A stretch of 40,734 nt of DNA from a virus. The number at the start of each line of letters is the position of its first letter. The stretch's first letter is position 1. A program made the position numbers and the translations under genes. The notes under the pieces were generated by a model. It made no database searches, was not told the origin of the DNA, and was given only the letters and a program-made list of their open reading frames with translations. Positions 4,891 to 32,123 of this stretch are shown here, one piece after another. The stretch covers positions 1 through 40,734 of the IMG/VR virus record IMGVR_UViG_3300032931_000221. One strand, 5' to 3'.

Positions 4891-4905
4891 GGAACCTCCA
4901 AATGA

Positions 4906-4937
4906 AAGGGGCCAAACCCCTAAAGGTCTGGCCCCTT
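4906..4937 (-). other. stem-loop in the leader of the scaffold-capsid message
   Basis: Inverted repeat AAGGGGCCA / TGGCCCCTT (9-bp arms, 14-base loop) between a promoter-like sequence at 4962-4990 and the scaffold ribosome site. On the minus strand it is followed by TCATTT, not a true U-run. It may be a 5' stabilising stem-loop or a weak terminator for readthrough from the giant gene. Confidence 0.55.
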
Positions 4938-4961
4938 CCTGAATATCCGCTGTTTGGACTT

Positions 4962-4990
4962 ATCTAACTACCTTTAGCCTCCCTTGTCAA
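4962..4990 (-). promoter_or_regulatory. candidate promoter for scaffold and capsid genes
   Basis: A perfect TTGACA (4990-4985) lies immediately after the stop codon of the giant gene, with a 17-base spacer and a weak TTAGAT -10 (4967-4962). It would start a transcript about 65 bases before the scaffold gene, with a stem-loop near its 5' end. The -35 is convincing and the -10 is not. Confidence 0.45.
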
Positions 4991-7900: not shown

Positions 7901-9490
7901 CCACCCATCCTCTGGGGTGCGGGTTGCCAGCGGCTTGAGACCGTTTAGTACCCGCAACGCCTCGGCGTCGTCCACGATGCGAAGATAGTCGTCAATGTAC
8001 GCCCTCAATGCGGGGTCCATAACGTAGTCACCAGGACGACTAAACACATCCAGCCAGTGGAGTGATGTGGACTTCACCCCAGGTTTCGGTGTGACACCCT
8101 TCAGGTTCTCGGCCTTGTCGATCTGCAAGAAGGGCTGCCGCCCGACGTATCTCTGCGCCTTGCTGTCAAGGCCCGCCTGTAGGGCCACCTCTGTCAACTG
8201 GTCGGCGGCCACCATCTGCCGCTCATAGGCGACGAGGGTACGGCCCAGCGGCGTGCCCTGGGCCACAGAGGGGTTGATACCCGTCCTCGCCACGAGGGCC
8301 TGGACAACGGGGTTATCTGAGGTCTCCACCTCGGCCACGACATCGGCGAAGGGCCGGAGTTCACCCGCGTAGGACGTGCCCCTGCCGCCGCCCATAGGGG
8401 GTAACTCAAACTCCGTAGCGACTGAAGGTTGCGCGGCTGTACGTACCGGCGGGTCTAGTCGCGGTTGGCCTGGCGGCGCTTCGGGGATAGCCGCTTTTTC
8501 TGCAACCGCTGGCACCGCCCCCTCCCGCCCTAGCACAGGGGCAGTTTCCGCAACGGGTGCGGCGACTTCGGGTGTCAGGGGTTTGGCCCCGATAACTGGC
8601 TTGACCTCGGCTACGGCCTCAGTTGCCGCGCCTTTCCCCAGTTGCCGCCCGATCACACCAGGCGCACGCCGTAGCAGGGGCGAGAATCCGCCTACGACCT
8701 CCGCCCCCATCTGTGCTTCGGGGGGCAGGCCCAACTCTTCCGCTACGCCCCCCGCGATGCCTGCGCCCAAGATGCTCTCGCCTGCGACCTTCAGGGCAGC
8801 CCCACTGAGGCCGCCCAGGGGAAGGGTGAGGCCGACAATCGGCGTGGTGGCGATCTCTGCCGTGCGGGCTATCGGTGCGCCCACCACAGGTATGCCCCTT
8901 ACCTTCTCTAGCGCCGACTCAGGGATAGGTGTCTGGAAGAAGGTAGACGGGTCGCCGGCTAGGAAACGCTCGCCCCAACTCGTCGGCGGCGCAGGGTCAA
9001 GGACGGCGATCTCATCGAGCAAGGCCCCACGGTCGATCCCGCGTTCACTCTCTGAGATCATCCGCCAGTAGTCCTCGCGGCTGAGGTTGCCCCGCTCCCG
9101 AAAGTGGGCGGCAGTCGTAGTCAACCCATCGAAGCGGCTAGCTGTCTGTTGCCCGAATGGGTCATCCTTGATAATGCCCTGGTCTACGGCGGTCTGAAAT
9201 GTCTTCGCCAGGTGCCCAGGGTCGCCATACTCGTATATGAACTCGCGGTAGGTGTCGGCGCTCATGGGGACGCCCGCCGCCACGATGTCGTTGTACCCCT
9301 TCTCCAGAGTCAGGAGGCCGACTTCATCCCGGACCTGCCGCATGGTATCTTGGATACCTGCGGGGGATAGAAGGGTCAGGAGGTTGCCCATCGCGCCTTC
9401 AGCGCGGGTAGCAGCCTCTCGTTCCTGCCGCTTGCGTTCCTCTTCCTCGGCAGCGAGGCGGTCATACAAAATCAAATCCACCGTCAGCAC
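4991..9490 (-). CDS. giant virion or DNA-ejection protein (1,499 residues)
   Basis: The largest gene in the window. It starts at GTG with AAGGAG seven bases upstream. A charged helical N-terminus (about 12-30) is followed by hydrophobic Gly/Ala segments (about 190-260), an Ala/Pro-rich linker (about 280-350), mixed alpha regions, a small-barrel-like piece near residue 660 (GTIVGYNREANRASVSFYNK), and a long C-terminal part with FAEPFVQGLLVFGKDPVVWS and WLAFAPRLLRSTTALVGDLR, resembling large polyvalent or internal virion proteins of uncultured phages. The last residues are GLGNLPPLTLPTP, a motif repeated in the neighbouring secreted protein. Without a tape measure in the genome it is the best candidate for an internal ejection protein. 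Exact function is inferred. Confidence 0.7.
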   Translation of the reverse strand: MLTVDLILYDRLAAEEEERKRQEREAATRAEGAMGNLLTLLSPAGIQDTMRQVRDEVGLLTLEKGYNDIVAAGVPMSADTYREFIYEYGDPGHLAKTFQTAVDQGIIKDDPFGQQTASRFDGLTTTAAHFRERGNLSREDYWRMISESERGIDRGALLDEIAVLDPAPPTSWGERFLAGDPSTFFQTPIPESALEKVRGIPVVGAPIARTAEIATTPIVGLTLPLGGLSGAALKVAGESILGAGIAGGVAEELGLPPEAQMGAEVVGGFSPLLRRAPGVIGRQLGKGAATEAVAEVKPVIGAKPLTPEVAAPVAETAPVLGREGAVPAVAEKAAIPEAPPGQPRLDPPVRTAAQPSVATEFELPPMGGGRGTSYAGELRPFADVVAEVETSDNPVVQALVARTGINPSVAQGTPLGRTLVAYERQMVAADQLTEVALQAGLDSKAQRYVGRQPFLQIDKAENLKGVTPKPGVKSTSLHWLDVFSRPGDYVMDPALRAYIDDYLRIVDDAEALRVLNGLKPLATRTPEDGWFYVPRKVVEAHGITPKRPSDPHMMRVYEEAAEGHATGTNYGRDPRENLRIHVRQSYREIIEAQLSEAVEPLSVTTKEIMPKPVLQRMSDATVRRIAAERAVRRELAQRGVATDWLTPGTRVKAADRENLGTIVGYNREANRASVSFYNKQTGARATVDLDAGLLSPLRSEEISQSALEMATPELRVEMEAAKAEWTKARSAYTASRKAAEKAQWTKGALFGRQEEYIPIVKWRNRFLPREDYEKLTDALRFISGGGPKANVVGRAHQVLGNAIRFLASVGDFAEPFVQGLLVFGKDPVVWSRATLRHYQAFFDPTVQARMIKDHLGTFQEMARYGTPVGDPEFFAAMRTGEGIPAGALLSKVPGGAGARQFLRQAGRQSFGRFQSQYNTGLGYSRALLTEAMKPTWKGTASDLQASIRNLTGGLDTRALGVGPTQRGIESMWLAFAPRLLRSTTALVGDLRYGVMNPRGRVAWESLGKLGTAATGLYITTGLALGKSWDEILAGLNPLAGKKFMSHEVNGDWIGVGGQVRAIAQLLATTGADIYKVRKGERPELTQMSMDNPLFQFYSSRGAVGMTTAGAAVEAATGLNTMPFENIDSPPDLLKHIGTSALPFTIQGQLEGESLWTWPASFLGARVSAGTTWEDTQRARDAEAKARGFKGWDDPNLDEPTKYQIDQTPKVAGLLTKLEQEGEDRPQTPQSQYYDQVDKVRAGQLTAQQTDDDLYNAGKITAREWDDRTTARNRDVWAAMQQAQKDFGITFEDAETTNPVDAAIAAYYAVDAEQYKDETGAVRWDEFMSAREAALAPLSTSERSMVEDYVHKLWTPTQWEMFRKGQQLQEYFNIPDTVYAANKDRLGLTAPSYSAYRAQATQEAQASAAAKGLGPEYVSERDYPRGYTRLQDMITREKDRYRRQNPDKNKLIIELGYKTASKADIARARGRTTGVQGLTPLTLPEGGGLGNLPPLTLPTP

Positions 9491-9504
9491 GCCGCAACTC
9501 CTTG

Positions 9505-9513
9505 TGGTATAAT
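9505..9513 (+). promoter_or_regulatory. extended -10 promoter for the plus-strand HNH gene
   Basis: TGG-TATAAT is a perfect -10 with the TGn extension. No good -35 is seen, as is normal for extended -10 promoters. Transcription would start near 9520, at the foot of a strong stem-loop, and run into the HNH gene against the surrounding operon. Confidence 0.6.
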
Positions 9514-9516
9514 AGT

Positions 9517-9547
9517 GCAGCGGCGACGGCGTTGACCGTCCCGCTGC
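9517..9547 (+). other. stem-loop at the 5' end of the HNH message
   Basis: GCAGCGG, one bulged C, GACGG, loop CGTTGA, then CCGTC and CCGCTGC: a 12-bp stem with one bulge. It begins 4 bases after the -10 box, so it would be at the very 5' end of the mRNA. Read on the other strand, it precedes the ribosome site of the giant virion gene. Confidence 0.65.
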
Positions 9548-9570
9548 ATGACACCAGGAGGTGAGTCCTG

Positions 9571-10125
9571 ATGCTCCCTCATTCTACACAACTCCCCATG
9601 TCTCTGGAAACCGAAGAATGGCGAGCCATCGTGGGATACGAAGGCATCTATGAGGTATCCAACCTCGGGCGGGTTCGACGGGTGAAACCAGGCAAGCACA
9701 CCCACGTCGGCCTTATTCGCCGCCCATCTCCCAATGGTGCCGGTTATCTTACCTTGGGTCTCTGGCGCGATGGGCAAGGGAGTGGGTATATTGCTGTCCA
9801 CGAACTCGTTGCTGAGGCGTGGATCGCTCCACGGCCTCCAGGCCATGAGGTCAATCACAAGGACGGGAACAAGAGAAACAATCGACCGCAGAATCTTGAA
9901 TGGGTCACACGCGGCGATAATTTCCGACATGCCTACAGACTTGGATTGAGAATGCCACCGTGCGGTGAGACCCAGGGCCAAGCCAAACTTACCGAGGATG
10001 CCGTGCGAGAGATCAGGGAGTCGAACGCAGAAGTCTCCTGTGCTGAGCTGGCTCGACGGTTCAAGGTAGACCCTTCGACCGTCTGGGTTGCGCGCTATCG
10101 TCGTACTTGGTGTCATGTCCAATAA
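9571..10125 (+). CDS. HNH homing-type endonuclease with NUMOD4 domain
   Basis: A 184-residue protein. An N-terminal NUMOD4-type segment (EEWRAIVGYEGIYEVSNLGR, about 14-33) is followed by an HNH core (HELVAEAWIAP, HEVNHKDGNKRNNRPQNLEW, about 77-111) and a C-terminal helix-turn-helix-like module (AKLTEDAVREIRE, then ELARRFKVDPSTVW). This is the standard layout of free-standing phage homing endonucleases, which cut a specific site and promote spread of their own gene. ATG 9571 follows GGAGGTGAG. It sits on the opposite strand to the virion operon with its own promoter, as expected for an inserted mobile gene. A second HNH gene (29241-29720) has a similar C-terminal module. Confidence 0.9.
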   Translation: MLPHSTQLPMSLETEEWRAIVGYEGIYEVSNLGRVRRVKPGKHTHVGLIRRPSPNGAGYLTLGLWRDGQGSGYIAVHELVAEAWIAPRPPGHEVNHKDGNKRNNRPQNLEWVTRGDNFRHAYRLGLRMPPCGETQGQAKLTEDAVREIRESNAEVSCAELARRFKVDPSTVWVARYRRTWCHVQ

Positions 10126-10134
10126 GGCTCGGTG

Positions 10135-10143
10135 TGCTATACT
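10135..10143 (+). promoter_or_regulatory. extended -10 promoter for the secreted protein gene
   Basis: TGC-TATACT lies 28 bases before the ATG at 10171 and just after the HNH stop codon. It has the same TGn-extended form as the promoter of the HNH gene. No clear -35. Confidence 0.45.
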
Positions 10144-10170
10144 TTTGCCCCGCCAGATGGAGGAATCGTC

Positions 10171-10527
10171 ATGAAACTCCGTATCCTCATCCTGGCCCTC
10201 GCAGTAACCCTGGCCTTCGGTGCGGGTGCCTTCGCGCTGTACGTCTTCCCTGGCCGGTCCGAATCGGTTCGGCCCCCTATAAGTTGCCGGGGGATTCAAT
10301 GCGAACCGACTACCGGACCAAGTCGCTGCGACCGCTTCTGGCAACTGATGGCAGATGCCCAAACAGATGGGGCGGTACGCGCCCTGGAAGTCTACCATCC
10401 CGACCATGACTGCTACCCTCGTGGTGGCACGGCCAGTGGCATATCTGGACTGCCGCCATTGTCGCTCGGCAACCTGCCACCGCTGACCCTGCCCCCACCG
10501 CTGATGCTGCCCACGCGCACGCCATAG
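10171..10527 (+). CDS. small secreted protein sharing a C-terminal motif with the giant virion protein
   Basis: A 118-residue protein with an N-terminal signal sequence or membrane anchor (MKLRILILALAVTLAFGAGA and a further hydrophobic run), a short domain with four cysteines (SCRGIQC, then RCDRFW, then HDCYP), and a Pro/Leu-rich tail GLPPLSLGNLPPLTLPPPL. The tail matches the end of the giant virion protein (GLTPLTL, then GLGNLPPLTLPTP), and the DNA agrees too. ATG 10171 follows ATGGAGGAATCGTC; an earlier in-frame ATG at 10132 lies on the promoter. It is next to the HNH gene and transcribed against the virion operon. No family is recognised; a moron-type or exported phage protein is inferred. 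Confidence 0.7.
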   Translation: MKLRILILALAVTLAFGAGAFALYVFPGRSESVRPPISCRGIQCEPTTGPSRCDRFWQLMADAQTDGAVRALEVYHPDHDCYPRGGTASGISGLPPLSLGNLPPLTLPPPLMLPTRTP

Positions 10528-13290: not shown

Positions 13291-15195
13291 TTAGACGACT
13301 CCTCCCATACCCGCCTGGCCGCCGCTAGGGCCAAGTGGGACTGCTGCGGGCACGGGGGGACGCGGCTGGTTCAAGGTCGCGTCCATTCCAGGCGCAGCCG
13401 AGCCCGTGGGAACACCGCCCGCCTGCGGCGGGGTAAGCGAGCCCGCGAGAGGCTCACCGTTAGGGCCAAGGATTGTCGGAGGGGCGGGGGGTTGGCGGGC
13501 CGCCACCTTTTGCGCGACGATCTGGCTGGCTATGACTATGGCCTGATCTATCTGGGCGTCGTACATCTTCTGCTCCGTGGCCCGACGTTGCATCTCAATG
13601 CCGTCCTCATAGCCAAAGAACGACTCGTACATCTCAATGTCGTCGATCTCGCCCGCAGCCCTTGCCCTTCGGCCCTCCTCCCACATGGCGATACGCGACG
13701 TGGGACTCATGGAGGACTGGCGGACGGTGATCTCGAAGTCGTCTATCTCGTCAGCCTTGAGGGACAGCACCTCAGCGGTGTTCCCGCCCTCTTCTGTGCG
13801 TCCCTGGTTCAGTGTCCTAACGTAGAGGGTATCGATCTTGCCATCCGTGACTTCGCTAATAGCCTTCGCCCCGTCCAACACGAGGTAGAGGATGTCCTTG
13901 ATGCCCTGACTCTGGATGGCGAGGGGCGGGTCAAGGTCGGTCATGGCAGCCTCGGCGATGAGCGCCTGCTGGTATCCCGAACTCACGCCCTCTTCCCTCA
14001 CGCCCCTGAGCGCCGGGGCGGGCTTGTACCTCACCAACTCATCCTCGACGGAGGCGACGGCGCGATCCAGAAGTTGTGCGGCGTCGGTAGGGAACTCGAA
14101 CGGGCCGACATCCCAACCATCGGGCCAGGACACGGTGCCGTCCTCATTAAAAGTGAGTTCGGGCTTCGGCTTGTCGCCCACCGGCCCAAGGCCCTTGTCG
14201 GCCTGGGGGCGGAAGGCCAGCCGCCACAGTCCGGCCATGACGCCGGAGTTGAGGCGAGCCGAGCGGAGCATATTGACCTCCTGGCCCATCGACAGCATAC
14301 CGAGGACCAGCGGCTTCCACCGCTCCAACGGGTCGGTGGAGTTCGAGAAGTCGCCCGCCATAAACACCCAGGCGGGGCGCTTGAACAGGTTGTCCCACTT
14401 CCCCAAGCCAAAGTCTTTCTCCCCCGTGGGGGTGTGCGCGTTCAGTAGGACGCGGTGTACGAACCCGCTATCCTCGACGGAGGCGATCTCCACGGTCTCA
14501 GCAAAACCCCCGTCCCAGAGGTCGTCGTAAGTCTTCGGTTCGGCTGTCCTGTCGATGCCGGAGTGCTTGTCGTAGGTGAGGGAGTATTCGTCTCCCTTGC
14601 CGTCTGTGTACCGTTTGTTGAGGAGGTCATGGACGGGCAGACTCTCGATGGTCACGACGCGGCGGGGCATCTTCAGGCGATCAAACTCTACGAAGACGTT
14701 GAGGGCGTCGGGGGTCTCCAGGGTGAAGGGCACGCCCGCGTCCTTCAGGTAGGCGTCGATGTCGTCCGCTTCGAGGCCCTTGTCAATCCAGTCCTGGTTC
14801 CAGACAAGGTGCGCGCACCACACGCCGTCCGCGACCTGAGAATCGGTGCCTAGAAACTGAGCACTCGGATAGCCGCAGTTGAAGTCGATCCAGAGTTTGT
14901 CCAAGAACCGGCGGATTCTACTCGCCGCCTGCTGCGCCTTCGCCTCGCCGGACTTGGCGAAGACGAGGATAGAGACGTTGGCGGCGAGGAGTCGGTTTCT
15001 GAGGACGCGCACAGCATCGTCAATCTCGTATGTCCGGTGCTTGATGTGGACGTTCTTCGACCACCCAGGAGGCAGAGGCGGGTCGAGTTTCCGCTGCCGG
15101 AGTTGTCGGCGGGTAGCTCGGATTTCATTGGTCTCACTCCACTCGGTCTGAAGGGCACGAGCCATCTTGGCGGCGTCGGTATCTGTCAGGCCCAT
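13291..15195 (-). CDS. portal protein
   Basis: A 634-residue protein directly after the large terminase, with its ATG overlapping the terminase stop by 10 bases. Size and place fit a portal, the 12-subunit ring through which DNA enters and leaves the capsid. Features include a charged helical N-terminus, a wing-like mixed region with VWCAHLVWNQDWIDKG, a long helical segment (PTDAAQLLDRAVASVEDELV), and a C-terminal helix (QKMYDAQIDQAIVIASQIVA) followed by a Pro/Gly-rich disordered tail. Gene order terminase-portal-scaffold-capsid supports the call strongly. The start has AGGAG upstream. Confidence 0.85.
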   Translation of the reverse strand: MGLTDTDAAKMARALQTEWSETNEIRATRRQLRQRKLDPPLPPGWSKNVHIKHRTYEIDDAVRVLRNRLLAANVSILVFAKSGEAKAQQAASRIRRFLDKLWIDFNCGYPSAQFLGTDSQVADGVWCAHLVWNQDWIDKGLEADDIDAYLKDAGVPFTLETPDALNVFVEFDRLKMPRRVVTIESLPVHDLLNKRYTDGKGDEYSLTYDKHSGIDRTAEPKTYDDLWDGGFAETVEIASVEDSGFVHRVLLNAHTPTGEKDFGLGKWDNLFKRPAWVFMAGDFSNSTDPLERWKPLVLGMLSMGQEVNMLRSARLNSGVMAGLWRLAFRPQADKGLGPVGDKPKPELTFNEDGTVSWPDGWDVGPFEFPTDAAQLLDRAVASVEDELVRYKPAPALRGVREEGVSSGYQQALIAEAAMTDLDPPLAIQSQGIKDILYLVLDGAKAISEVTDGKIDTLYVRTLNQGRTEEGGNTAEVLSLKADEIDDFEITVRQSSMSPTSRIAMWEEGRRARAAGEIDDIEMYESFFGYEDGIEMQRRATEQKMYDAQIDQAIVIASQIVAQKVAARQPPAPPTILGPNGEPLAGSLTPPQAGGVPTGSAAPGMDATLNQPRPPVPAAVPLGPSGGQAGMGGVV

Positions 15196-16502
15196 TGGCC
15201 GATCTCCTGCTTCTCCCTACGACTAGAGTAGGGAACGGACCACGAGAACAACCCCTCCATGCCCGCCGAACTCGGCTTTTCCGAAACAACGTAGGTGTTC
15301 TCATATCCGACGATGGCGTACCGCAGGGCGTCGGGGAAGTGGTCGTTGGCCTTAACGAGTGTGTCGGCGAAGGAGTCGCCGAGGTTCTGCGCCTTCCTCT
15401 GGTACGTCCTGAGTTCCCTGACGCCGTTAGGGCAGCGTTCGGGGTTGATATGAATGAGGTTGTCCCTGAAATACTGTTGGACGACCCTGACCCCGCCCTC
15501 CACGTCCTTGACGGGGCAGGGGCGAACGTCGAACCCTGCGGCGCGGGCGCTGCGAATGAAATACTCAGCCGTGGTCTCACAGAACCAGGCGGCGATCTTG
15601 TACCGCTTCTCCATGTCGGCCATGTGCGCCAGGAGGTCGGTGGTCGCAACCCGCCGCCCGTAGAACTCCTCTGGGCACCAGAGCTGGTTCTTATGGACGC
15701 CGAGGGGGACGAGGACAGAGGGGGAGATGTCGCCGAGGTCTATCCCCCCGACGCCTATCGTGAAGTCTTGTTCGCCGACCCACATATTCCCGTTGTCAAA
15801 CTGCGGGTACACGAGGCCCTCGAACAGTGTGTAGTGTCCAAGGAGTTCCTGTTCCTCGAAGTCGGTGCCCCGATACTCGTCCTCCATGTCCTCGATGTAC
15901 CCCCGTGGGAGGTGGGGGCGATTCTCATAGATCGAGGTGACGAAGACCTTATAGTTCTTCTTGCCTTCCTCGCCGAAGACCTCAAAGGACCAGTCATAGC
16001 CTCTGGGTGTGCCCGTCGCCCACATGCTGTTGACGGTGCCCTTGGGCGGTGGGAGGCGTTTACAGCCGAGGGCGACGCGCCATGCCTGGTAGGGGCAGTA
16101 GGCGTACTCGTCAAACCACACGTCGTTAGCCTCAAGGGAACGGGTCACGTTGGGGTCAGAGGCCGTGTAGAAAGTGACGATGGAGCCGTTCACAAACTCC
16201 ATCTTCTGAGGAGGAGAACGGTCATAGGAGAGGATGGTGTCGGGGTTAGTCCACTGCAAGGCCGTCTCGATGATCCCGTCCCTGAGTTTGTTGTAGTCAG
16301 GTGCCAAGCATATCCCCTTGGTGTTCTTGTAGTTCCAGCGGCGCCGTAGCATCCTGCCCCACCCGCCCGTGGTCTTGGCACTGCCTCGACCTCCCCGCCA
16401 GAGGAGGAACGGCGTGGTGTCGTCGGTGACAAACTCCTCCTGTTTGGAGGCTTCGCCTGCCCCACGAAGGCCCACGTCAAGGATCAGGCGTCTCGCCTTC
16501 AT
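15186..16502 (-). CDS. terL: terminase large subunit
   Basis: A 438-residue packaging motor. The Walker A motif GGRGSAKT is at residues 37-44 and Walker B DVWFDE at 127-132; WATGTPRG (161-168) is a coupling-motif-like segment. The C-terminal nuclease has GGIDLGD (Asp255, Asp258), CET near 308-310 and Asp391 in HFPDALRYAIVGY, matching the RNase H-like terminase nuclease. It uses ATP to drive DNA into the procapsid and cuts the concatemer. It overlaps the gene before it by 26 bases and the portal after it by 10. Length is normal for the family. Confidence 0.95.
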   Translation of the reverse strand: MKARRLILDVGLRGAGEASKQEEFVTDDTTPFLLWRGGRGSAKTTGGWGRMLRRRWNYKNTKGICLAPDYNKLRDGIIETALQWTNPDTILSYDRSPPQKMEFVNGSIVTFYTASDPNVTRSLEANDVWFDEYAYCPYQAWRVALGCKRLPPPKGTVNSMWATGTPRGYDWSFEVFGEEGKKNYKVFVTSIYENRPHLPRGYIEDMEDEYRGTDFEEQELLGHYTLFEGLVYPQFDNGNMWVGEQDFTIGVGGIDLGDISPSVLVPLGVHKNQLWCPEEFYGRRVATTDLLAHMADMEKRYKIAAWFCETTAEYFIRSARAAGFDVRPCPVKDVEGGVRVVQQYFRDNLIHINPERCPNGVRELRTYQRKAQNLGDSFADTLVKANDHFPDALRYAIVGYENTYVVSEKPSSAGMEGLFSWSVPYSSRREKQEIGQWA

Positions 16503-16824
16503 CCTCTACTTCCTCAAACTCGGCCTCGTCCGCCCCCTCTTCGAGTTGGAGGGCCTGCCCGATGATCGGCCTATCATTGACACTGACAAGGATGATGGGC
16601 TGGAGGTTCTTGCCCGTGTGCTTGACCTCGACAGGAGGCTTGCCCAAGAGACGATCTTCAATGGCCTGGGCGCAGATGTGGCACCCACCCTTCTTCTTGA
16701 GGTGGTTCTTCCGCATCTCGGTAACGAGGTTCCAGGTCGGGCCGTAACGATCTACGACGAGGTCACGGGTATCAACCTCGCCCTTGTACCGGAAGTGGTT
16801 GCGGCTCCCTGTCTGCCTCGGCAT
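16477..16824 (-). CDS. terminase small subunit candidate (by position)
   Basis: A 115-residue protein in front of the large terminase, first in the packaging operon. The N-terminal half is basic (MPRQTGSRNHFRYKGEVDTR, then MRKNHLKKKGGCHIC), the C-terminal tail very acidic. This place is normally held by the small terminase subunit, which recognises packaging sites, but no clear helix-turn-helix is visible and one CxxC (CHIC) is present. It could instead be an unrelated accessory protein. The ribosome site is weak. Its promoter is probably at 16912-16939. Confidence 0.55.
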   Translation of the reverse strand: MPRQTGSRNHFRYKGEVDTRDLVVDRYGPTWNLVTEMRKNHLKKKGGCHICAQAIEDRLLGKPPVEVKHTGKNLQPIILVSVNDRPIIGQALQLEEGADEAEFEEVEDEGETPDP

Positions 16825-16877
16825 CTCACGCTGGGCCTGGCGGAAGGGGCCAGCCTAACCCCAGGCCCATATAAGAA

Positions 16878-16897
16878 GGCCAGCCCGCCGGCTGGCC
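16878..16897 (-). other. stem-loop at the start of the packaging-operon message
   Basis: GGCCAGCC and GGCTGGCC with a 4-base loop, 15 bases downstream of a strong promoter and about 55 bases before the gene at 16824. On the minus strand it is followed by TTCTTATAT, so it could act as an attenuator or terminator as well as a 5' cap-like hairpin. Confidence 0.65.
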
Positions 16898-16911
16898 CCC
16901 TTCTGAAAGTT

Positions 16912-16939
16912 ATGATAGTCCTTAATTGGTAAATGTCAA
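16912..16939 (-). promoter_or_regulatory. strong sigma-70-type promoter for the packaging and head operon
   Basis: TTGACA (16939-16934), a 16-base spacer and TATCAT (16917-16912). The -35 is perfect and the -10 has five of six consensus bases. It points at the terminase-portal-head genes and is the best candidate for the main late promoter. Transcription would start near 16905, at the edge of a stem-loop. Confidence 0.65.
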
Positions 16940-17190: not shown

Positions 17191-17277
17191 TTACGGCAGC
17201 CAGTCCCACCAAGCGGCCCAAATGCCGATGGCGTAGACCCAACCCAAGCAGATGACGATCCAGAAGATGGCCTTCAT
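17191..17277 (-). CDS. 28-residue single-pass membrane peptide
   Basis: MKAIFWIVICLGWVYAIGIW and a Trp-rich end (AAWWDWLP). The ATG overlaps the stop of the nuclease gene as ATGA, and AGGAGGAAGGC gives a strong ribosome site, so translation is well supported despite the tiny size. Almost the whole peptide is one hydrophobic segment. Function unknown; small phage membrane peptides can act in superinfection exclusion, lysis control or host signalling. A similar 28-residue peptide lies at 22059-22145. Confidence 0.7.
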   Translation of the reverse strand: MKAIFWIVICLGWVYAIGIWAAWWDWLP

Positions 17278-17759
17278 GCCTTCCTCCTCCTCATGGCCCG
17301 TACCCTGCACGCAGGACTGAAGTACACCGGTCGCACCTTCACCATCTCCCCACACCCGCAGGCACAGGGAACAGTGCCTGGACTGAATGGTGGCGGGAAT
17401 AGTTCGTCGATGTCCTCGGTCCCGTCTAGTTTGACAAGCCCACGGTCGGGATGGGCGAGCACAACATCAAGACCCGCTCGTGCCAAGAGAGCGGCTACGA
17501 ACCGCTGCTCACGAGACATCGAGGCACCACCCGACTTCACTTCAGCAGCAAACGCCTCCTCAGAACCGCCTACTACCCTGAAGCATAGGAAGTCTGGCCA
17601 GCCGTTCTTGATTACTCTGTACCCGTCCGCTTCCCACTGCCGACGGAACTCTTGCTCCGCCTTCGAGCCCTGCTGGCTAGGGCTCGGCACGTCGCACAGC
17701 AATACCGCTTCCCCTCTCGCCCCTTGGTCGCTTTCTGGCACCACTGACATGGCCTCCAT
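17274..17759 (-). CDS. PD-(D/E)XK (VRR-NUC-like) nuclease with a C-terminal zinc ribbon
   Basis: A 161-residue protein. The nuclease core reads SKAEQEFRRQWEADGYRV, then WPDFLCFRV (motif Asp) and FAAEVKSGGASMSREQRFVA (E-x-K and helix), then VVLAHPD, the pattern of VRR-NUC/Holliday-junction-resolvase-like nucleases. The C-terminus has CACGCGEMVKV and FSPACRVRAMRRRK, a zinc ribbon. It may process DNA ends or branched DNA. The first 25-30 residues lie inside the upstream zinc-ribbon gene and the real start could be GTG 17690; no start has a good ribosome site. The end is overlapped by the membrane peptide. Confidence 0.75.
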   Translation of the reverse strand: MEAMSVVPESDQGARGEAVLLCDVPSPSQQGSKAEQEFRRQWEADGYRVIKNGWPDFLCFRVVGGSEEAFAAEVKSGGASMSREQRFVAALLARAGLDVVLAHPDRGLVKLDGTEDIDELFPPPFSPGTVPCACGCGEMVKVRPVYFSPACRVRAMRRRKA

Positions 17760-17826: not shown

Positions 17827-18273
17827 CAGGGTGCCCACCTGTAACGCTGCGTGTCAAGGGAAGGATGTACCCCCCCTGAAGCTGGAACGCTAAATAATAG
17901 ACTAATTCTGGGGAGTCTAACACTACCACTATACGCACCCGCACCGCGCCGCCTGCATCGCCCTTGCTTGCTGCCAGCCTTGCGCTTTCAGTAGTTATGT
18001 GAAGTATCGAGCCTGTGGCGCGTGCTAGGGGGCCTCTAGAGGGGGCTAGTTAGCTTCAAATAAGGCCGTCCGTCCGGCTATACTAGCTTCCAGCTTCAGC
18101 CTGCCCCGCGTGCATACTGATTGCGTACTGCCACGCGTTGCATGCACACACCTAACGTTGTTGACATTGTGTACTCATCTTGTCACGTATCGCAGGTGAA
18201 CAGCCATTTACCAACTACTTGCTAACTTAATGACTATAAGTACCCTAACCACAGCGACACGTTCAGGCAGCAC
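17827..18273. other. intergenic region between divergent operons
   Basis: About 450 bases without a gene I can support on either strand, with visibly lower GC than the flanks. It holds three CTAG sites spaced about ten bases apart within 18025-18049, separated by G-rich runs; a TTGACA at 18161 without a good -10; and a TATACT at 18079 without a -35. It lies between the promoters of the minus-strand nuclease operon and the plus-strand early operon, so regulators probably bind here. An attachment site or replication origin is possible, but I see no diagnostic repeat. Confidence 0.5.
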
Positions 18274-18302
18274 TTGACAAGCCTTAGAGATGGGCCGATA
18301 CT
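18274..18302 (+). promoter_or_regulatory. promoter of the plus-strand early operon
   Basis: TTGACA (18274-18279), a 17-base spacer and GATACT (18297-18302). The -35 is perfect and the -10 matches four of six. Transcription would start about 18309, the first base of a long inverted repeat, and run into the operon that ends with the integrase. Confidence 0.6.
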
Positions 18303-18308
18303 GGCAGC

Positions 18309-18372
18309 GATAAGACCGGCGGCGATTTTTATTGACACTCTGGCCCTGGTCCCGACGCCGCCCGGTCTTATC
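18309..18372 (+). repeat. long inverted repeat at the 5' end of the early operon
   Basis: GATAAGACCGG (18309-18319) pairs perfectly with CCGGTCTTATC (18362-18372), and CGGCG pairs with CGCCG (18356-18360) after one extra base, giving a 16-bp stem around a 31-base centre that contains ATTTTTATTGACA. It begins at the predicted transcription start and lies 43 bases before the first gene. It could be a regulatory RNA stem, an operator pair or part of a recombination site. Confidence 0.7.
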
Positions 18373-18415
18373 ACGGGGTAGCAAGGGACTGGGGCCTTAG
18401 TGTTAAGGGGATACG

Positions 18416-18613
18416 ATGAAAGCACGATTCTATGTTCCGTGGCGCGACGATCCCCTGGAGGGCGAGGTCATCTACACAGGCAAGGTGCAACGTAGGCGCA
18501 ATGGCAAGCTGGCACCGGGCAAGACGGATATGATTCACGTCCAAGTAGACGACGAGCACCGGACCGTTTACTCACTGCGGGCTGACCGCGACGACTGGGA
18601 AGAAATAGCCTAG
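18416..18613 (+). CDS. small early protein 1
   Basis: A 65-residue protein starting MKARFYVPWRDDPLEGEVIY, with alternating charged and hydrophobic residues that suggest a small beta-barrel (VIYTGKVQRRRNGKL, then IHVQVDDEHRTVYSL). It is the first gene of the plus-strand operon, with start context AAGGGGATACG. No family recognised. Position after a regulated promoter suggests an early host-takeover or regulatory role. Confidence 0.7.
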   Translation: MKARFYVPWRDDPLEGEVIYTGKVQRRRNGKLAPGKTDMIHVQVDDEHRTVYSLRADRDDWEEIA

Positions 18614-19617: not shown

Positions 19618-19802
19618 GCCTCAGACACAACTTAGTCGCAGGCATGTGTTATGACAAGCCCCCTCGTACCTTGCGCGAGGCCAACGCTGACGCCCAGAAT
19701 ATGCTTCACTACTACGCGAACGGCAAGGCGACAGCGGGCCAACTGAAGCGGATCATGCGTGAGATTCGGGATCATCTGGCCCAAGCTGAGGGGCTGCCAT
19801 GA
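19614..19802 (+). CDS. small hypothetical protein upstream of integrase
   Basis: A 62-residue, mainly helical protein (MSLRHNLVAGMCYDKPPRTL, then EANADAQNMLHYYANGKATA and QLKRIMREIRDHLAQAEGL). Its ATG overlaps the membrane-peptide stop (ATGA) and its TGA overlaps the next short frame. The helical, charged C-terminus could bind DNA or protein. An excisionase role is conceivable from position but no signature is visible. Confidence 0.65.
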   Translation: MSLRHNLVAGMCYDKPPRTLREANADAQNMLHYYANGKATAGQLKRIMREIRDHLAQAEGLP

Positions 19803-19885
19803 CCACACTCCCACCCGTTACCCCCGCCTTCAGGGACGCCGTGCGGGGAGATGGCGCAACGGGTTCGTATTCATTAGCGGGCTGA
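19799..19885 (+). CDS. possible 28-residue leader peptide before integrase
   Basis: A short frame, MTTLPPVTPAFRDAVRGDGA and eight more residues, starting with an ATGA overlap and ending 17 bases before the integrase GTG. It may be only a coupling leader. It could also be chance; composition is not diagnostic. Confidence 0.3.
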   Translation: MTTLPPVTPAFRDAVRGDGATGSYSLAG

Positions 19886-19902
19886 GAAGCCCAGGAGGTG
19901 AA

Positions 19903-20598
19903 GTGAGACCGTCCCGCCTACCCCGTGCCCTCACCGTCGCTGAGTGCGAGTGCCTGTTGGCTGCGTGCAAGGACGCAGAGCTGCGGGCGCTCGTGGCATT
20001 CTTGTGGGAAAGTGGCTGTCGCGTGAGTGAGGCGCTGGCACTTACATGGCAGGACGTGGATTGCGATGATCGCAGCGCCAGAGTCACCGGCAAGGGGCAT
20101 AAGCAGCGGGTTGTGTTCTTTGTAGGGGTATTTGAATCTGGCGGGGCGCTACGATTGGCAACAGACGGCCTAAACGATACCCCCCCCGTGTCCCTGACCG
20201 CCCATAGGCCGCAAGGCCATTTCGCTAGATACGCAGACCCCCCTTGCTGGGCGTCCTGTGAGGGCACCGAGGGCCGCATTTGGGCAAGAACTCGTCAAGC
20301 CTACTCCCTGCGCCTGAAGGCCGCCGCGAAGAGGGCGGGGATTGAGGGCATGCACTTCCACCTGTTGCGCCACTCGTTCGCCAGCCAAATGCTGAACAAC
20401 GGTGCCGACCTGCGAACCGTCCAGGAACTCATGGGGCATGTCCGCGTTGACACGCTGGCTGGATACTGGCATCTTGCAGACCCGCGCCTCCAAGCCCTTA
20501 GACAAAGCATTGTCACCGGCCTGCCACGAGCAAGGGCGTTCCTCTTGTCTCACCCCGACTCCTGGTCTGACGAACAAGCCTCACGACTCGACGGCTGA
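19903..20598 (+). CDS. int: minimal tyrosine recombinase (integrase)
   Basis: A 231-residue catalytic domain starting at GTG after AGGAGGTG. Active-site residues are visible: Arg40 in GCRVSEAL, Lys64 in VTGKGHKQR, His153-x2-Arg156 in HFHLLRHSF, His179 in MGHV, and Tyr188 in LAGYWHL. Family members insert or resolve DNA through a covalent phosphotyrosine. The N-terminal SAM-like core-binding domain is missing; a longer frame from GTG 19759 would add only a low-quality segment read through other genes. An extra segment (about 75-130) separates the Lys and His boxes. It suggests a temperate phage or a dimer-resolution enzyme. Its 3' end overlaps the convergent gene by 49 bases. Confidence 0.88.
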   Translation: MRPSRLPRALTVAECECLLAACKDAELRALVAFLWESGCRVSEALALTWQDVDCDDRSARVTGKGHKQRVVFFVGVFESGGALRLATDGLNDTPPVSLTAHRPQGHFARYADPPCWASCEGTEGRIWARTRQAYSLRLKAAAKRAGIEGMHFHLLRHSFASQMLNNGADLRTVQELMGHVRVDTLAGYWHLADPRLQALRQSIVTGLPRARAFLLSHPDSWSDEQASRLDG

Positions 20599-26735: not shown

Positions 26736-26876
26736 CTAGTCACTTACCCACCACCCCACCTCGGCCTCTCCCGCCGCCTGGGCGGGCTTAGGGGCATGGC
26801 CGCTGTAGCCTGCTTCAGTGGCGCTTGCAGCGATTCCTTCCCCTAAGTCGGCCCAGGCGAGGGGCGAAACCCTCAT
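26736..26876 (-). CDS. 46-residue hypothetical peptide
   Basis: Starts at an ATGA overlap with the stop of the HNH-type gene, with GGAAGAAGAC upstream, and reads MRVSPLAWADLGEGIAASAT, ending AEVGWWVSD. No family recognised; coupling and ribosome site are the evidence. Confidence 0.5.
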   Translation of the reverse strand: MRVSPLAWADLGEGIAASATEAGYSGHAPKPAQAAGEAEVGWWVSD

Positions 26877-27589
26877 GTCTTCTTCCGGCGGTGTACGTTG
26901 CCACACGAATCGCACTCGCACATCTCCGGCGGCACCCGCCCCTGCCGCTCCCGCAACCTCTCCACCACGGCCTGACGAGGATTGTCCAATAGCGCACCCG
27001 TTGCGATTTCTATGGCCTCGTCAGGATCGGCGTCGGTGGCAATCGCGTGAGAGATTCTTCCCGATAACAGCTTCCAGTCGTCGGGCCTGTCCTTGAAGAT
27101 GGGGTATTCCTTCGCCCAATACTCCAACTGTCGCGGCGAGTACCCCCGCGTCTGTCCGGTGTAGTCGCGCACGAACTCGGCCAGCCTCTCGGCCCACCGT
27201 TCCCCGTACCCGTAGCGCCGCTGCCATTCATACGCACACTGGGCGACCACCTGCACCATGTCCGCCGCCCTCTCTAGGGCCTGGGCGATAAGCATGGCTA
27301 GCTTCTCATCGGACCAGTAGCGCGGGTCGGGTGAGTCTTCTTTCACCGTAAGCGCCCGCTCGCTCTGCACATGGCCGTCGAGTGTGGCCGTGCTCACGAA
27401 GTCGCCGTTGAGGATGAGCTTAAACTTCTTGGCGTGAAGCGCCTCGTGATGCTCACGGCACAGACTCACGCGCTGCGGTTCCACTGCCGTCCCGCCCATT
27501 CCCTTCGAGGAACGGTCTTCTGGCTGGTGGTGTTCAGGGACGGCGGGCCGGCCACAGCGCATGCAGACGGTGGTGGTGTCTGTCGTCAT
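26873..27589 (-). CDS. HNH-type zinc protein, possible endonuclease or DNA-binding protein
   Basis: A 238-residue protein. The N-terminus has VCMRCGRPAVPEHHQPEDRS and SLCREHHEALHAKKF, together a CxxC-HH-CxxHH layout of HNH/McrA-type fingers. A long helical middle (DEKLAMLIAQALERAADMVQ) and PDEAIEIATGALLDNPRQAV follow, with a second zinc knuckle CECDSCGNVHRRKK at the end. The HNH part may cut DNA, but the catalytic Asn-His arrangement is not clear; it could be a structural finger. ATGA overlap with the gene before. Confidence 0.7.
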   Translation of the reverse strand: MTTDTTTVCMRCGRPAVPEHHQPEDRSSKGMGGTAVEPQRVSLCREHHEALHAKKFKLILNGDFVSTATLDGHVQSERALTVKEDSPDPRYWSDEKLAMLIAQALERAADMVQVVAQCAYEWQRRYGYGERWAERLAEFVRDYTGQTRGYSPRQLEYWAKEYPIFKDRPDDWKLLSGRISHAIATDADPDEAIEIATGALLDNPRQAVVERLRERQGRVPPEMCECDSCGNVHRRKKT

Positions 27590-28419: not shown

Positions 28420-28623
28420 CTACCATTCTTGTTCCGCTACGCTCTCCGCAAGTCCTGGCGGTAGGCGCTTCACCTTCGGACTGCACTCGCGGCATGGGGT
28501 CAATATCTCCTTGATCTGCCAGCGGTGCCTGCGAAGGTAATCCTCAAAGGCAAGCGGTATCGACTCGCCGTGGCAACCGCAGTAGTAGTGCCCGCAGGAA
28601 TACTTCAAGGCGTATTGCTTCAC
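28420..28623 (-). CDS. small cysteine-rich protein with GTG start
   Basis: A 67-residue protein, KQYALKYSCGHYYCGCHGES, then CRECSPK, a likely zinc knuckle. The GTG overlaps the TGA of the HNH gene; GAGGTG is upstream. Longer frames lie inside that gene and look non-coding. Function unknown. Confidence 0.65.
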   Translation of the reverse strand: MKQYALKYSCGHYYCGCHGESIPLAFEDYLRRHRWQIKEILTPCRECSPKVKRLPPGLAESVAEQEW

Positions 28624-29012
28624 AGCAGCACCTCTGCCATGTGCGCCCGTATCCGCTCCCCAGTACCAGCCCGACCATCCGCGATCATGTGATGTCTGCG
28701 GCAAAGGAAGGCGATGTTACTCGGATCATTGTTGTTTGCATTCCCATCGATGTGGTGGCGCTCACCCGTCTGACCACAGACGGAGCATGGTTGAACATTG
28801 TAAAGGCGGCGGGCACGCTTCCTGGCGGTGCCGATGGGAGCCATAGCACCCTTCCAATTGGGGTTAGCTACGCTGCACCGATGGCCTGTCTTGAGATAAA
28901 GACGGCCCGCCGAGATGTCCTTTTCATCAAGGGATTCTCTGCATCCACAGACACAAAGATGTCCGACCTTAAGGTGCCTGCGCCGACTGACTGACTTTCC
29001 CCAACGTGGCAT
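28620..29012 (-). CDS. HNH endonuclease
   Basis: A 130-residue protein. An N-terminal cysteine cluster (HLCVCGCRESL) and RCSVANPNWKG precede the HNH core: CSVCG (76-80), RHHIDGN (85-91) and LCRRHHMIADG (103-113). The core histidines and asparagine are intact. AGGAGCAACGAC precedes the ATG. It is probably a free-standing homing or packaging-type HNH nuclease; the small size and intact core support activity. Confidence 0.85.
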   Translation of the reverse strand: MPRWGKSVSRRRHLKVGHLCVCGCRESLDEKDISAGRLYLKTGHRCSVANPNWKGAMAPIGTARKRARRLYNVQPCSVCGQTGERHHIDGNANNNDPSNIAFLCRRHHMIADGRAGTGERIRAHMAEVLL

Positions 29013-29022
29013 GTCGTTGCTC

Positions 29023-29244
29023 CTAAAGTAGACTTGCCTGCTTCACGCCTGCTGACTCTTGCCCCATGCAACCAGTCCAGCGACGGGCTATCTCGTCCAG
29101 GCCGTCCAGGCTACCGTGGAGCGTGTAGAGGGTCTTCTGGCGACCACAGCGACGACAGTGAACCGTGAACTTGTAGCCGTGGTCGGTGCCCACGTCGTTC
29201 AGGATTTCAAGGTCGTGGGGGGAAGGGCGGTTAGGAGTTGTCAT
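29023..29244 (-). CDS. small zinc-knuckle protein
   Basis: A 73-residue protein, MTTPNRPSPHDLEILNDVGT, then FTVHCRRCGRQKTLYTL and a late Cys-Met (WTGCMGQE). ATGA overlap with the HNH gene before it. The CxxC pair can hold half a zinc site. No family recognised. Confidence 0.7.
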   Translation of the reverse strand: MTTPNRPSPHDLEILNDVGTDHGYKFTVHCRRCGRQKTLYTLHGSLDGLDEIARRWTGCMGQESAGVKQASLL

Positions 29245-29720
29245 GGTAGCCACTTCCAGGTTTCACGGTTGATGATTCGCCAGATGGTGTGCGTGCAAAC
29301 CCCGTACTGGTGAGCGAGAGCCTCTAGGGAGTGGTGGTCATCTCTAGCACGGCGAAGGCCATTCCGTGCCTGGCGGATCGCCTGCACGTCAGCCTCGGTC
29401 AACTTGGCGTTGTAGTGGCCCTCACCGCGAGGTATCCGTCCCTTGGCTGCGGCATCGCCAATGTTATCTAGGGGCCTACCAAGGTAGAGGTGGTCTGGAT
29501 TGACACAGGGGGGGTTATCGCAGGTGTGGCAGCAGTCTATTCCCGCAGGAATCGGGCCGATGAAGAGTACATAGGATAGCCGATGGGCATAGACCCTCCG
29601 GCCAGCAACACTGACCATGCCGTATCCAGCAGGCAACCTTGCGCCTTGCCAAATCCAGCAGTCACCAGAGGTATCCACGCGGGAAAGAAACTGGTCAGGC
29701 GTAATCGTATGGTCAACTAT
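29241..29720 (-). CDS. HNH endonuclease with C-terminal DNA-binding module; start unclear
   Basis: The HNH core is clear: SGDCWIWQGARLPAGYG, then YAHRLSYVLFIGPIPAG, CCHTCDNPPCVNPDHLYLG and DNIGDAAAKGRIPRG. The tail (YNAKLTEADVQAIRQ, then ALAHQYGVCTHTIWRIINRE) parallels that of the plus-strand HNH at 9571. No ATG, GTG or TTG lies at a sensible place; the frame is open from about 29720 (ATA) and the first usable start, GTG 29678, would cut into the domain. So the start is uncertain, or the gene is 5'-damaged. Either state fits a mobile endonuclease. Confidence 0.75.
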   Translation of the reverse strand: MVDHTITPDQFLSRVDTSGDCWIWQGARLPAGYGMVSVAGRRVYAHRLSYVLFIGPIPAGIDCCHTCDNPPCVNPDHLYLGRPLDNIGDAAAKGRIPRGEGHYNAKLTEADVQAIRQARNGLRRARDDHHSLEALAHQYGVCTHTIWRIINRETWKWLP

Positions 29721-29749
29721 TGATATATAGTGCGAAGTGAGACGGGGAT

Positions 29750-29923
29750 TCAGTTCAGTGGGGACAGCGCCCTGTACCCGCGTGCCAGCATCTCGGCGGC
29801 CAAGTACTCCGCCATCTTGGGCGTGACTCGGAGGCGGCGTTGGAACAGGGCGGGACTGCACCAACCGTATTCTCCAGTCAGGAATTCGGCTCTGTCGATG
29901 AGGAAGGCGACTGGCGCGAACAT
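29750..29923 (-). CDS. 57-residue hypothetical protein
   Basis: Reads MFAPVAFLIDRAEFLTGEYG, then CSPALFQRRLRVTPKMAEYL and AAEMLARGYRALSPLN. CTGGAGAATCGGC precedes the ATG. It overlaps the end of the MerR-like gene by 46 bases. The basic, helical C-terminal half could bind nucleic acid. The longer reading frame of the HNH gene in this stretch is its shadow. Confidence 0.6.
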   Translation of the reverse strand: MFAPVAFLIDRAEFLTGEYGWCSPALFQRRLRVTPKMAEYLAAEMLARGYRALSPLN

Positions 29924-31417: not shown

Positions 31418-31695
31418 GCCTTTAGCCACGGCGGGGGCTGATGCCGTTCCATTTGAAGAATGGCTACCTTCGGAATGAGGACGATACTATCGGCGTTGAA
31501 GTCGTCCTCTTCGCCTTCAGACTTCATTCGGCCCCCTATCGCTGCGGTGATCGCAATACTGTCTTCTGTCTCACGTAGCAGCCAGCCAACGCTAGTACAC
31601 GGTAACGTGTCTTCGGGCGGCAGGGTACGATACCAGCCGTGTTGCCCTGAACTGTCGAGCCACTTCAGATAGACGATCTCGGTCGGCTCCTTCAT
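31414..31695 (-). CDS. small hypothetical protein, possible LSm-like barrel
   Basis: A 93-residue protein: VYLKWLDSSGQHGWYR, then CTSVGWLLRETEDSIAITAA and SIVLIPKVAILQMERHQPPP. Strand-turn-strand pattern (VGWLLRETEDSIAIT...VLIPKVAI) looks like a small beta-barrel. ATGA overlaps at both ends place it in an operon with the sigma-like protein and phosphoesterase. Function unknown. Confidence 0.65.
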   Translation of the reverse strand: MKEPTEIVYLKWLDSSGQHGWYRTLPPEDTLPCTSVGWLLRETEDSIAITAAIGGRMKSEGEEDDFNADSIVLIPKVAILQMERHQPPPWLKA

Positions 31696-32075
31696 GCCTT
31701 CCCCATCCGCTTGCGGGCCTGCTTCTTCATCTCAGAGACGCGGCCCGCGCTCACGCCCAGCGATAGGCCGATCTCCTCCGTGGTGTACCCCGCCGCTGTC
31801 AGCATAAGGGCCTGCCGGTGACGGGGGGAGAGGGTACGGAGCTGGGCTTGGGCGTCGAGGCGCTTGACTGTTTCGGCCTCGAAGCTAGGGGTGGAGAGGG
31901 ACTGCGGCACAAACCCCGTCTGGGGATCGGGGTCAGCGTCAAGGGAGCAGTAGGTAAGGAGGATGTCGCGGTTCCGACCCCGCACGTACCACGCTCGCCA
32001 GTCGTCTTTGTCCCAATGGCGCAGAAGCCCCCACCACCAGCCCATCGTACGCTTAGTGTCCACTGGAATGTCCAC
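31692..32075 (-). CDS. sigma-70 region-4-like helix-turn-helix protein
   Basis: A 127-residue protein. The C-terminal half TLSPRHRQALMLTAAGYTTE, then EIGLSLGVSAGRVSEMKKQA is a sigma region-4/LuxR-type helix-turn-helix with the typical acidic-basic turn. The N-terminal part is short and lacks region 2, so it is not a complete sigma factor. It could control late transcription. The GTG start at 32075 is uncertain, with no good ribosome site; ATG 32045 is an alternative. Repeats of TGTCCAC lie at its start. Confidence 0.75.
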   Translation of the reverse strand: MDIPVDTKRTMGWWWGLLRHWDKDDWRAWYVRGRNRDILLTYCSLDADPDPQTGFVPQSLSTPSFEAETVKRLDAQAQLRTLSPRHRQALMLTAAGYTTEEIGLSLGVSAGRVSEMKKQARKRMGKA

Positions 32076-32123
32076 ATACTTTCGTGTCTACCGCACACCT
32101 AGCGCGCCCCAGGGAATGTCCAC
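32057..32123. repeat. three TGTCCAC repeats at the start of the sigma-like gene
   Basis: TGTCCAC occurs at 32057-32063, 32069-32075 and 32117-32123; the last two are in a longer GGAATGTCCAC. Two copies lie in the beginning of the gene and one at the end of the amidase gene. Candidate binding sites. Confidence 0.6.

What the first reader, a model, noticed from the sequence alone, without database searches (positions are those of the whole stretch)
18274..18372. Phage promoters followed at or near +1 by a strong stem-loop
Four promoter-like sequences in this genome each have an inverted repeat at the predicted 5' end of the message: 18274-18302 with the 18309-18372 stem (plus), 9505-9513 with 9517-9547 (plus), 16912-16939 with 16878-16897 (minus), and 4962-4990 with 4906-4937 (minus, about 25 bases after a weak -10). 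The sequences of the stems differ, so shape, not sequence, is shared. It is known that 5'-terminal stem-loops can protect bacterial mRNA from decay that starts at the 5' end. That this phage uses them as a general 5' cap-like feature, or as attenuators, is inference.
Basis: partly seen in the sequence, partly recalled or inferred. Interest (0 to 1): 0.62.

Follow-up and report, generated by a model that had tools for sequence, protein, structure and literature searches.

The report
Phage promoters with start-site RNA hairpins
In this uncultured temperate phage and its only known relative, the strongest predicted promoters run straight into an RNA hairpin at the first transcribed base; before the packaging and capsid genes that hairpin looks like a built-in transcription stop that the phage probably overrides when it makes particles, and before the integrase-side genes it is a conserved knot-like RNA.

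Summary
The observation largely holds. In the window, the two best sigma-70-type promoters (16939-16912 minus, 18274-18302 plus) each run into a strong stem at predicted +1. In the one relative found (IMGVR_UViG_3300032020_000178; TerL 70% identical) the same promoter-stem units sit before terS, before the scaffold gene and before the rightward operon. Two corrections. First, the terS and scaffold stems do share sequence (AGAAGGGG(G)CCAG..GGCC + U-rich); they are one family, and the only terminator-like sites (score >0) on either strand of both genomes. Second, the 18309-18372 stem is half of a conserved interleaved two-helix (pseudoknot-type) leader: helix A starts at +1 in both phages, with 6 of 11 pairs changed on both sides and none broken. 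The 4962 site keeps its hairpin, but its promoter is poorly spaced. The 9505 site belongs to an inserted HNH endonuclease cassette. Best explanation: promoter-proximal terminators (attenuators) gate late genes and are overridden by antitermination, working like lambda pR'-tR' or AlpA, with the hairpin moved to +1. The 5'-stability idea remains a rival. The antiterminator is unidentified; a sigma-region-4 protein (31692-32075) is only a lead. New variant of a known kind; no RNA data exist.

The parts
16912..16939 (-). late promoter TTGACA-16-TATCAT upstream of terS
   Evidence: best promoter match in the window (11/12); conserved as TTGACA-17-TATCGT in the relative L002 2219-2247
16869..16904 (-). 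terminator-like hairpin at predicted +1 of the terS leader (AGAAGGGGGCCAGCC ggcg GGCTGGCCTTCTTATAT)
   Evidence: -25.4 kcal/mol, z -4.9; terminator score 20.8, highest in genome; conserved in relative
16832..16869 (-). second hairpin of the terS leader (TGGGCCTGG..CCAGGCCCA); its loop carries CTGGCCC, complementary to the 5' arm of the first hairpin
   Evidence: sequence and fold; GGGCCTG..CTGGCCC retained in the relative; function unknown
16477..16824 (-). small gene before terL, putative terminase small subunit (by position)
   Evidence: overlaps the start of terL 15186-16502; terL by Pfam/PHROG
4962..4990 (-). weak promoter-like TTGACA-18-TAGATA before the scaffold-like gene
   Evidence: sequence; spacing to hairpin not as in relative
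4904..4940 (-). terminator-like hairpin in the leader of the scaffold-like gene (GGAAGGGGCCAGACC..GGTTTGGCCCCTTTC), same family as 16869-16904
   Evidence: -28.8 kcal/mol, z -5.3; terminator score 18.2; conserved in relative at G001 7242-7275 minus
18274..18302 (+). rightward promoter TTGACA-17-GATACT
   Evidence: 10/12 match; TTGACA-17-GAAACTGGCA at the same place in the relative
18309..18372 (+). helix A of the rightward leader: 18309-18319 pairs with 18362-18372 (11 bp), inner CGGCG/CGCCG
   Evidence: relative has a 12-bp helix at the same place with 6 of 11 outer pairs changed on both sides
18342..18396 (+). helix B: 18342-18353 pairs with 18385-18396 (12 bp), extended by 18332-18339/18399-18406; interleaves with helix A
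   Evidence: conserved topology in relative; joint chance about 3 in 48000 positions
18322..18337 (+). sequence block GCGATTYYTATTGRCA kept in both phages in the loop between helix strands A5' and B5'
   Evidence: alignment A4; pattern with GGGACTGGGG found only in the relative among IMG/VR contigs
18416..18613 (+). first ORF of the rightward operon (65 aa, unknown); integrase follows at 19759-20598
9505..9513 (+). extended -10 promoter (TGGTATAAT) of the HNH cassette
   Evidence: sequence
9517..9547 (+). hairpin at the 5' end of the HNH endonuclease message, before the SD of ORF 9571-10125
   Evidence: -22.2 kcal/mol, z -5.2; the cassette interrupts a gene junction that is continuous in the relative
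31692..32075 (-). 127-aa protein with a sigma-70 region 4 domain; candidate late regulator or antiterminator (lead only)
   Evidence: Pfam Sigma70_r4 1.9e-8, PHROG sigma factor 1.1e-6; structure model too poor to use

Best explanation
The two late-gene leaders (before terS and before scaffold/capsid) are promoter-terminator modules. Host sigma-70-type polymerase starts at the A of AGAAGGGG; the first ~35 nt fold into a hairpin with a U-tract that stops transcription by default, giving only a tiny RNA. Late in infection a phage factor makes the polymerase ignore the stop, so packaging and capsid genes are switched on together (promoter-proximal attenuation with antitermination, as in lambda pR'-tR'). 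The rightward leader (18309-18406) uses a different +1-anchored structure, an interleaved two-helix RNA ending just before the Shine-Dalgarno sequence, which probably controls the integrase-side operon at the level of translation or read-through. Shown by computation: promoters, hairpins, conservation, terminator-like features, helix covariation. Inferred: start sites, termination, antitermination, and identity of the factor.
For: Same promoter-7 nt-hairpin unit at two orthologous places in a relative with TerL 70% and portal 66% identical. In 62 kb on both strands the only four sites with terminator score >0 are these four hairpins (16-21; next best -1.5 or lower), while simulated sequence gives 0-1 sites >0 per strand and none >15. 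U-tails of all four lie in the top 0.08-0.17% of positions. Ten G(5')-U(3') pairs against two U(5')-G(3'), i.e. U is preferred on the 3' side. The loop-proximal pairs vary but mostly keep pairing, including one A-U to U-A change in the scaffold hairpin. The arrangement, strong constitutive-looking promoters in front of late genes of a temperate phage (integrase), makes sense if output is gated after initiation. Known precedents: Q proteins load at the late promoter and pass terminators (PMC6606751); AlpA serves two promoters each followed by an intrinsic terminator immediately upstream of the first gene (PMC7969949). For the rightward leader: the two longest helices of each phage have the same interleaved order and near-identical positions, 6 of 11 pairs of helix A doubly changed, 0 broken, chance about 6e-5 per site.
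Against: Only two genomes. No RNA data. The 5' arm AGAAGG itself dictates a pyrimidine-rich 3' arm, so some terminator-likeness follows from the stem sequence. No antiterminator is identified, the sigma-region-4 protein is only a lead, and no shared element between -35 and -10 was found in the window's two late promoters. The window's scaffold promoter is poorly spaced from its hairpin. Terminator score weights were recalled (d'Aubenton Carafa-type), tuned on E. coli; the host is unknown.
Confidence: 0.5

Rival explanations
1. 5'-terminal protective stem-loops: every message of this phage starts with a stem that blocks 5'-end-dependent decay (as ompA or papA leaders do), which gives long-lived late mRNA. 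U-richness is a by-product of the purine 5' arm.
For: Stems begin at +1 to +3 in unrelated sequence contexts (late, rightward, HNH), exactly what 5'-end protection needs; hairpins sit a short way before the SD of the highly expressed scaffold/capsid genes. 5' hairpins hinder 5'-end conversion and stabilise mRNA in E. coli and Bacillus (PMC3997798).
Against: Does not explain why these are the only intrinsic-terminator-like sites in both genomes, the G-U use that enriches U on the 3' side, or the interleaved helix B of the rightward leader.
Confidence: 0.2
2. Operon-boundary terminators: the hairpins end the upstream transcription unit, and the promoter for the next unit has been squeezed in just upstream; read-through by the new promoter is simply incomplete termination.
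For: Each late hairpin is the first structure after the stop codon of the preceding gene. A terminator before terS would also stop early leftward transcripts from running into late genes.
Against: A promoter placed before rather than after the terminator, at fixed spacing in three of four copies, would defeat its purpose unless termination is regulated. No comparable terminator exists at other operon ends, including the convergent junction near 20.6-20.8 kb.
Confidence: 0.15
3. The promoters make two related tiny (~35-40 nt) non-coding RNAs with a common 5' arm (AGAAGGGGCC) that act on other targets; downstream genes are transcribed from elsewhere.
For: Shared 5' sequence in four copies and a terminator right after it.
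Against: Position fixed in front of the same two late genes in both phages; the conserved part is mostly locked inside the stem.
Confidence: 0.05
4. The inverted repeats are DNA sites (operators, packaging or attachment sites) and not RNA elements.
For: Position next to terS would suit a packaging site; the rightward repeat lies in the operon that carries the integrase.
Against: A second late copy lies before scaffold, far from terS; phasing to promoter +1; helix A keeps pairing while most of its letters change, which a protein-bound DNA site would not be expected to allow.
Confidence: 0.07

Closest known systems
Lambdoid late promoter pR' with leader terminator tR' and Q antiterminators (lambda Q, 21Q)
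   Same: Late genes behind a promoter followed by an intrinsic terminator; a phage-encoded late regulator is expected; 21Q has a sigma-region-4-like fold (PMC6606751), and this phage encodes a sigma-region-4 protein
   Different: Here the terminator starts at +1, not nearly 200 nt downstream as in lambda (own knowledge); there are two such modules; no Q homologue, Q-binding repeats or -10-like pause element was identified
AlpA regulon of Pseudomonas aeruginosa (PMC7969949)
   Same: Two promoters of one regulon, each followed by an intrinsic terminator before the first gene
   Different: No AlpA homologue identified here, no common element between -35 and -10 shown in the window, terminator at +1
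HK022 put RNA (PMC9378689)
   Same: Structured RNA at the 5' end of a phage transcript just downstream of the promoter; two helices
   Different: put is two consecutive stem-loops that suppress termination; here the late hairpins are themselves terminator-like, and the rightward leader is interleaved, not consecutive
ompA/papA-type 5'-terminal stabilising stem-loops (PMC3997798)
   Same: Stem within a few bases of the 5' end
   Different: A U-tract terminator is not part of that design; stabilisation not tested here
T4/RB69 gene 32 leader pseudoknot (PMC535899)
   Same: Pseudoknot upstream of an SD in a phage leader, kept in topology in a relative
   Different: Longer helices (11-14 bp) here, starting at +1; downstream gene has no match to gp32

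Membership tests
Intrinsic (Rho-independent) terminator | G+C-rich hairpin directly followed by U-rich tract | tested here: met
   Four of four late hairpins, scores 16-21, only such sites in both genomes
Intrinsic (Rho-independent) terminator | RNA 3' ends released at the U-tract | not testable with these tools
   Needs Term-seq or in vitro transcription
Q-type antitermination-controlled late promoter | Late promoter followed by terminator ahead of the late operon | tested here: met
   Promoter-hairpin units before terS in both phages
Q-type antitermination-controlled late promoter | Q binding element between -35 and -10 and -10-like pause element in the initial transcribed region | tested here: inconclusive
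   By eye no repeat or -10-like element common to the late promoters; the relative's two promoters resemble each other upstream of +1, the window's two do not
Q-type antitermination-controlled late promoter | Q-family antiterminator protein | tested here: inconclusive
   No Q family hit among the proteins scanned, but not every ORF was scanned; sigma-region-4 protein 31692-32075 is a lead; single-sequence model pLDDT 46
HK022 put RNA | Two consecutive stem-loops near the promoter that suppress termination | tested here: not met
   Late hairpins are terminator-like; rightward leader is interleaved; no Rfam match at gathering score and only chance-level matches for the rightward leader
5'-terminal stabilising stem-loop | Stem starts within a few nt of the 5' end | tested here: met
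   Predicted starts only; stems begin +1 to +3
5'-terminal stabilising stem-loop | Longer mRNA half-life because of the stem | not testable with these tools
   Needs RNA decay measurements
Known riboswitch or leader RNA family (Rfam 15) | Covariance model match above gathering score | tested here: not met
   Whole window 0 matches

The most novel reading that the evidence does not exclude
A phage lineage in which transcription is controlled mainly by structures that begin at the first transcribed base: every late promoter carries its own +1 terminator that a dedicated phage factor must override, and the integrase-side operon starts with a new +1-anchored pseudoknot switch. This would be a compact promoter-terminator gate and a new leader RNA class.
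Probability: 0.25. Interest if true: 0.68.

Novelty: new variant of a known kind. Interest (0 to 1): 0.5.

Why it matters
Late-gene control of most uncultured temperate phages is unknown. Finding that the only terminator-like sites of a phage genome are two +1 hairpins directly behind its late promoters gives a concrete, testable model from sequence alone and points to a search for the matching antiterminator. The conserved interleaved rightward leader is a candidate new RNA element.

Tried and rejected
(1) Finding more relatives: TerL (single and two-row alignment), MCP, portal, a WFDEYAYCP motif and leader patterns in IMG/VR, and TerL in GTDB genomes, gave only one true relative, plus TerL relatives at 24-29% identity. 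(2) Generality of the late module: the unrelated IMG/VR sites and the 4 genome sites matching the promoter + AGAAGGGG pattern lack the strong GC hairpin with U-tract. The one clear hairpin among them (L035) has an A-run before it and so looks like a terminator read on the other strand. (3) The three more distant TerL relatives (L004-L006) have promoter matches but no stem of comparable strength at +1. (4) Rfam: no known family. (5) Attenuation by the second terS-leader hairpin (its loop is complementary to the first hairpin) was rejected as the cause of read-through, because it is made only after the terminator has been passed. (6) Structure of the sigma-region-4 protein: model too poor for fold search. 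(7) ORF 9484-10407 minus has no family match and lies opposite the HNH gene; judged spurious. (8) phages collection: no DNA match, TerL only distant matches below 60% identity.

Full report
What the window is. The window is one IMG/VR virus record of 40,734 bases, 61% G+C. It carries an integrase (19759-20598 plus), terL (15186-16502 minus), endolysin (32123-32809 minus) and a minor tail protein, so it is most likely a temperate tailed phage. Portal (13291-15195), scaffold-like (4009-4890) and MCP-like (3027-3998) genes have no family match and are named by position. Almost everything is on the minus strand; only 18.4-20.6 kb and an HNH gene at 9571-10125 (NUMOD4 + HNH_3) are on the plus strand.

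Checking the four sites. 16939-16912 minus is TTGACA-16-TATCAT followed after 7 nt by a 13-bp hairpin of -25.4 kcal/mol. 18274-18302 plus is TTGACA-17-GATACT with a stem starting at 18309. 9505-9513 is an extended -10 (TGGTATAAT) without -35; its hairpin is strong, but its outer pairs lie upstream of the expected +1, and a shortened form starts at +1. 4990-4962 minus is TTGACA-18-TAGATA with a hairpin of -28.8 kcal/mol about 25 nt after the -10. A 5'-terminal hairpin with MFE <= -18 in 38 nt occurs at 0.6% of positions and <= -22 at 0.09%. An unbiased promoter scan of the window and its relative gives five promoters at >=10/12; four run into a stem at +1, and the fifth (relative, 7656 minus) puts an ATG 7 nt after the -10, which agrees with the spacing assumed for +1. 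These sites are partly homologous to one another, so they are not independent trials.

A relative. Searches of IMG/VR and GTDB found one true relative, G001 (21,129 bp; TerL 70% and portal 66% identical). Before its terS lies TTGACA-17-TATCGT-7 nt-AGAAGGGGCCAGC ttcg GTTGGCCTCTTTTT. Before its scaffold gene lies TTGACA-17-TAGAGT-7 nt-AGAAGGGGGCCAGTCC tttc GGGGACCGGCCTCTTTTC. So the window's two minus-strand sites are members of one conserved family with a common 5' arm, not unrelated sequences. In the window's scaffold leader the hairpin is intact but about 14 nt further from the -35, so this promoter may be decayed.

Terminator character. With a d'Aubenton Carafa-type score (weights recalled, not looked up), all four late hairpins score 16-21, and no other place on either strand of both genomes exceeds 0. 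First-order Markov sequence gives 0-1 sites >0 per strand and none >15. A wider scan allowing longer hairpins confirms this; the next best sites score -1.5 (window) and -2.0 (relative). U-tails are in the top 0.08-0.17% of positions. Ten pairs have G on the 5' and U on the 3' side, against two of the reverse. The caveat is that the purine 5' arm forces a pyrimidine 3' arm.

The rightward leader. Aligning 18240-18430 with the relative shows the promoter conserved (TTGACA-17-GAWACTGGCA) and a kept block GCGATTYYTATTGRCA. In each phage the two longest possible helices are A, starting 7-8 nt after the -10 (window 18309-18319/18362-18372; relative 12 bp), and B (window 18342-18353/18385-18396; relative 14 bp), in the order A5', B5', A3', B3'. 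Helix A has 6 of 11 pairs changed on both sides and none broken in ungapped comparison (4 with a gapped alignment); helix B has 2 double and 3 one-sided changes and 1 break. Only 3 of 48,000 random positions show such an arrangement. The nested minimum-energy fold of the whole leader prefers extended B and draws the Shine-Dalgarno region into pairing, so A and B may be alternative states or a pseudoknot; this is inference. Rfam has no match.

The HNH site. In the relative the genes flanking the window's HNH cassette overlap by 4 bp, and the window gene starts at the residue matching position 6 of the relative's protein. The HNH gene with its promoter and hairpin is therefore an insertion, and this site says nothing about the phage's general design.

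Mechanism. Shown: promoters, hairpins, positions, conservation, terminator-like features. Inferred: initiation at +1, default termination after ~35-40 nt, relief by a phage factor. The architecture works like lambda pR'-tR' with Q (PMC6606751) and like the AlpA regulon, where two promoters are each followed by an intrinsic terminator and one factor acts on both (PMC7969949). Membership in those systems is not claimed: no Q or AlpA homologue or binding element was identified. 21Q resembles sigma region 4 in fold (PMC6606751), and the window encodes a 127-aa protein with a sigma region 4 domain at 31692-32075 (Pfam 1.9e-8), which is a lead only; its model was too poor to use. The rival that stems protect the 5' end (PMC3997798 and references therein) is consistent with stems starting at +1 in different contexts but does not explain the U-tracts or helix B.

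Verdict. The late modules most likely are +1 attenuators. Evidence rests on two genomes and no RNA data.

Noticed in passing
window 9571-10125 plus; 9484-9570: Inserted, inverted HNH/NUMOD4 endonuclease cassette with its own extended -10 promoter and 5' hairpin, splitting a gene junction that overlaps by 4 bp in the relative.
   Followed up: partly
L002 13474-13831 plus: Relative carries a different ORF, HNH-like by eye only, between its ~1424-aa gene and the scaffold promoter, with TTGACA-18-TATACT ending 7 nt before its ATG: an apparently leaderless message.
   Followed up: partly
window 16832-16869 minus: Second conserved hairpin in the terS leader whose loop (CTGGCCC) can pair with the 5' arm of the first hairpin.
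   Followed up: partly
window 31692-32075 minus: Protein with a sigma-70 region 4 domain just downstream of the endolysin gene; candidate late regulator.
   Followed up: partly
window 4991-9490 minus and L002 9196-13470: Very large protein (1499 and 1424 aa) upstream of scaffold; ends conserved, middle strongly diverged, no Pfam or PHROG match.
   Followed up: no
window 17274-17759 minus: VRR-NUC nuclease gene (Holliday junction resolvase-like) beside the late promoter; its C-terminal CACGCGE..YFSPACR region is kept in the relative.
   Followed up: no
window 26873-27589, 28620-29012, 29241-29954 minus: Further HNH-type endonuclease matches (strong for 29241-29954, weak for the other two); the phage seems rich in them.
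   Followed up: no
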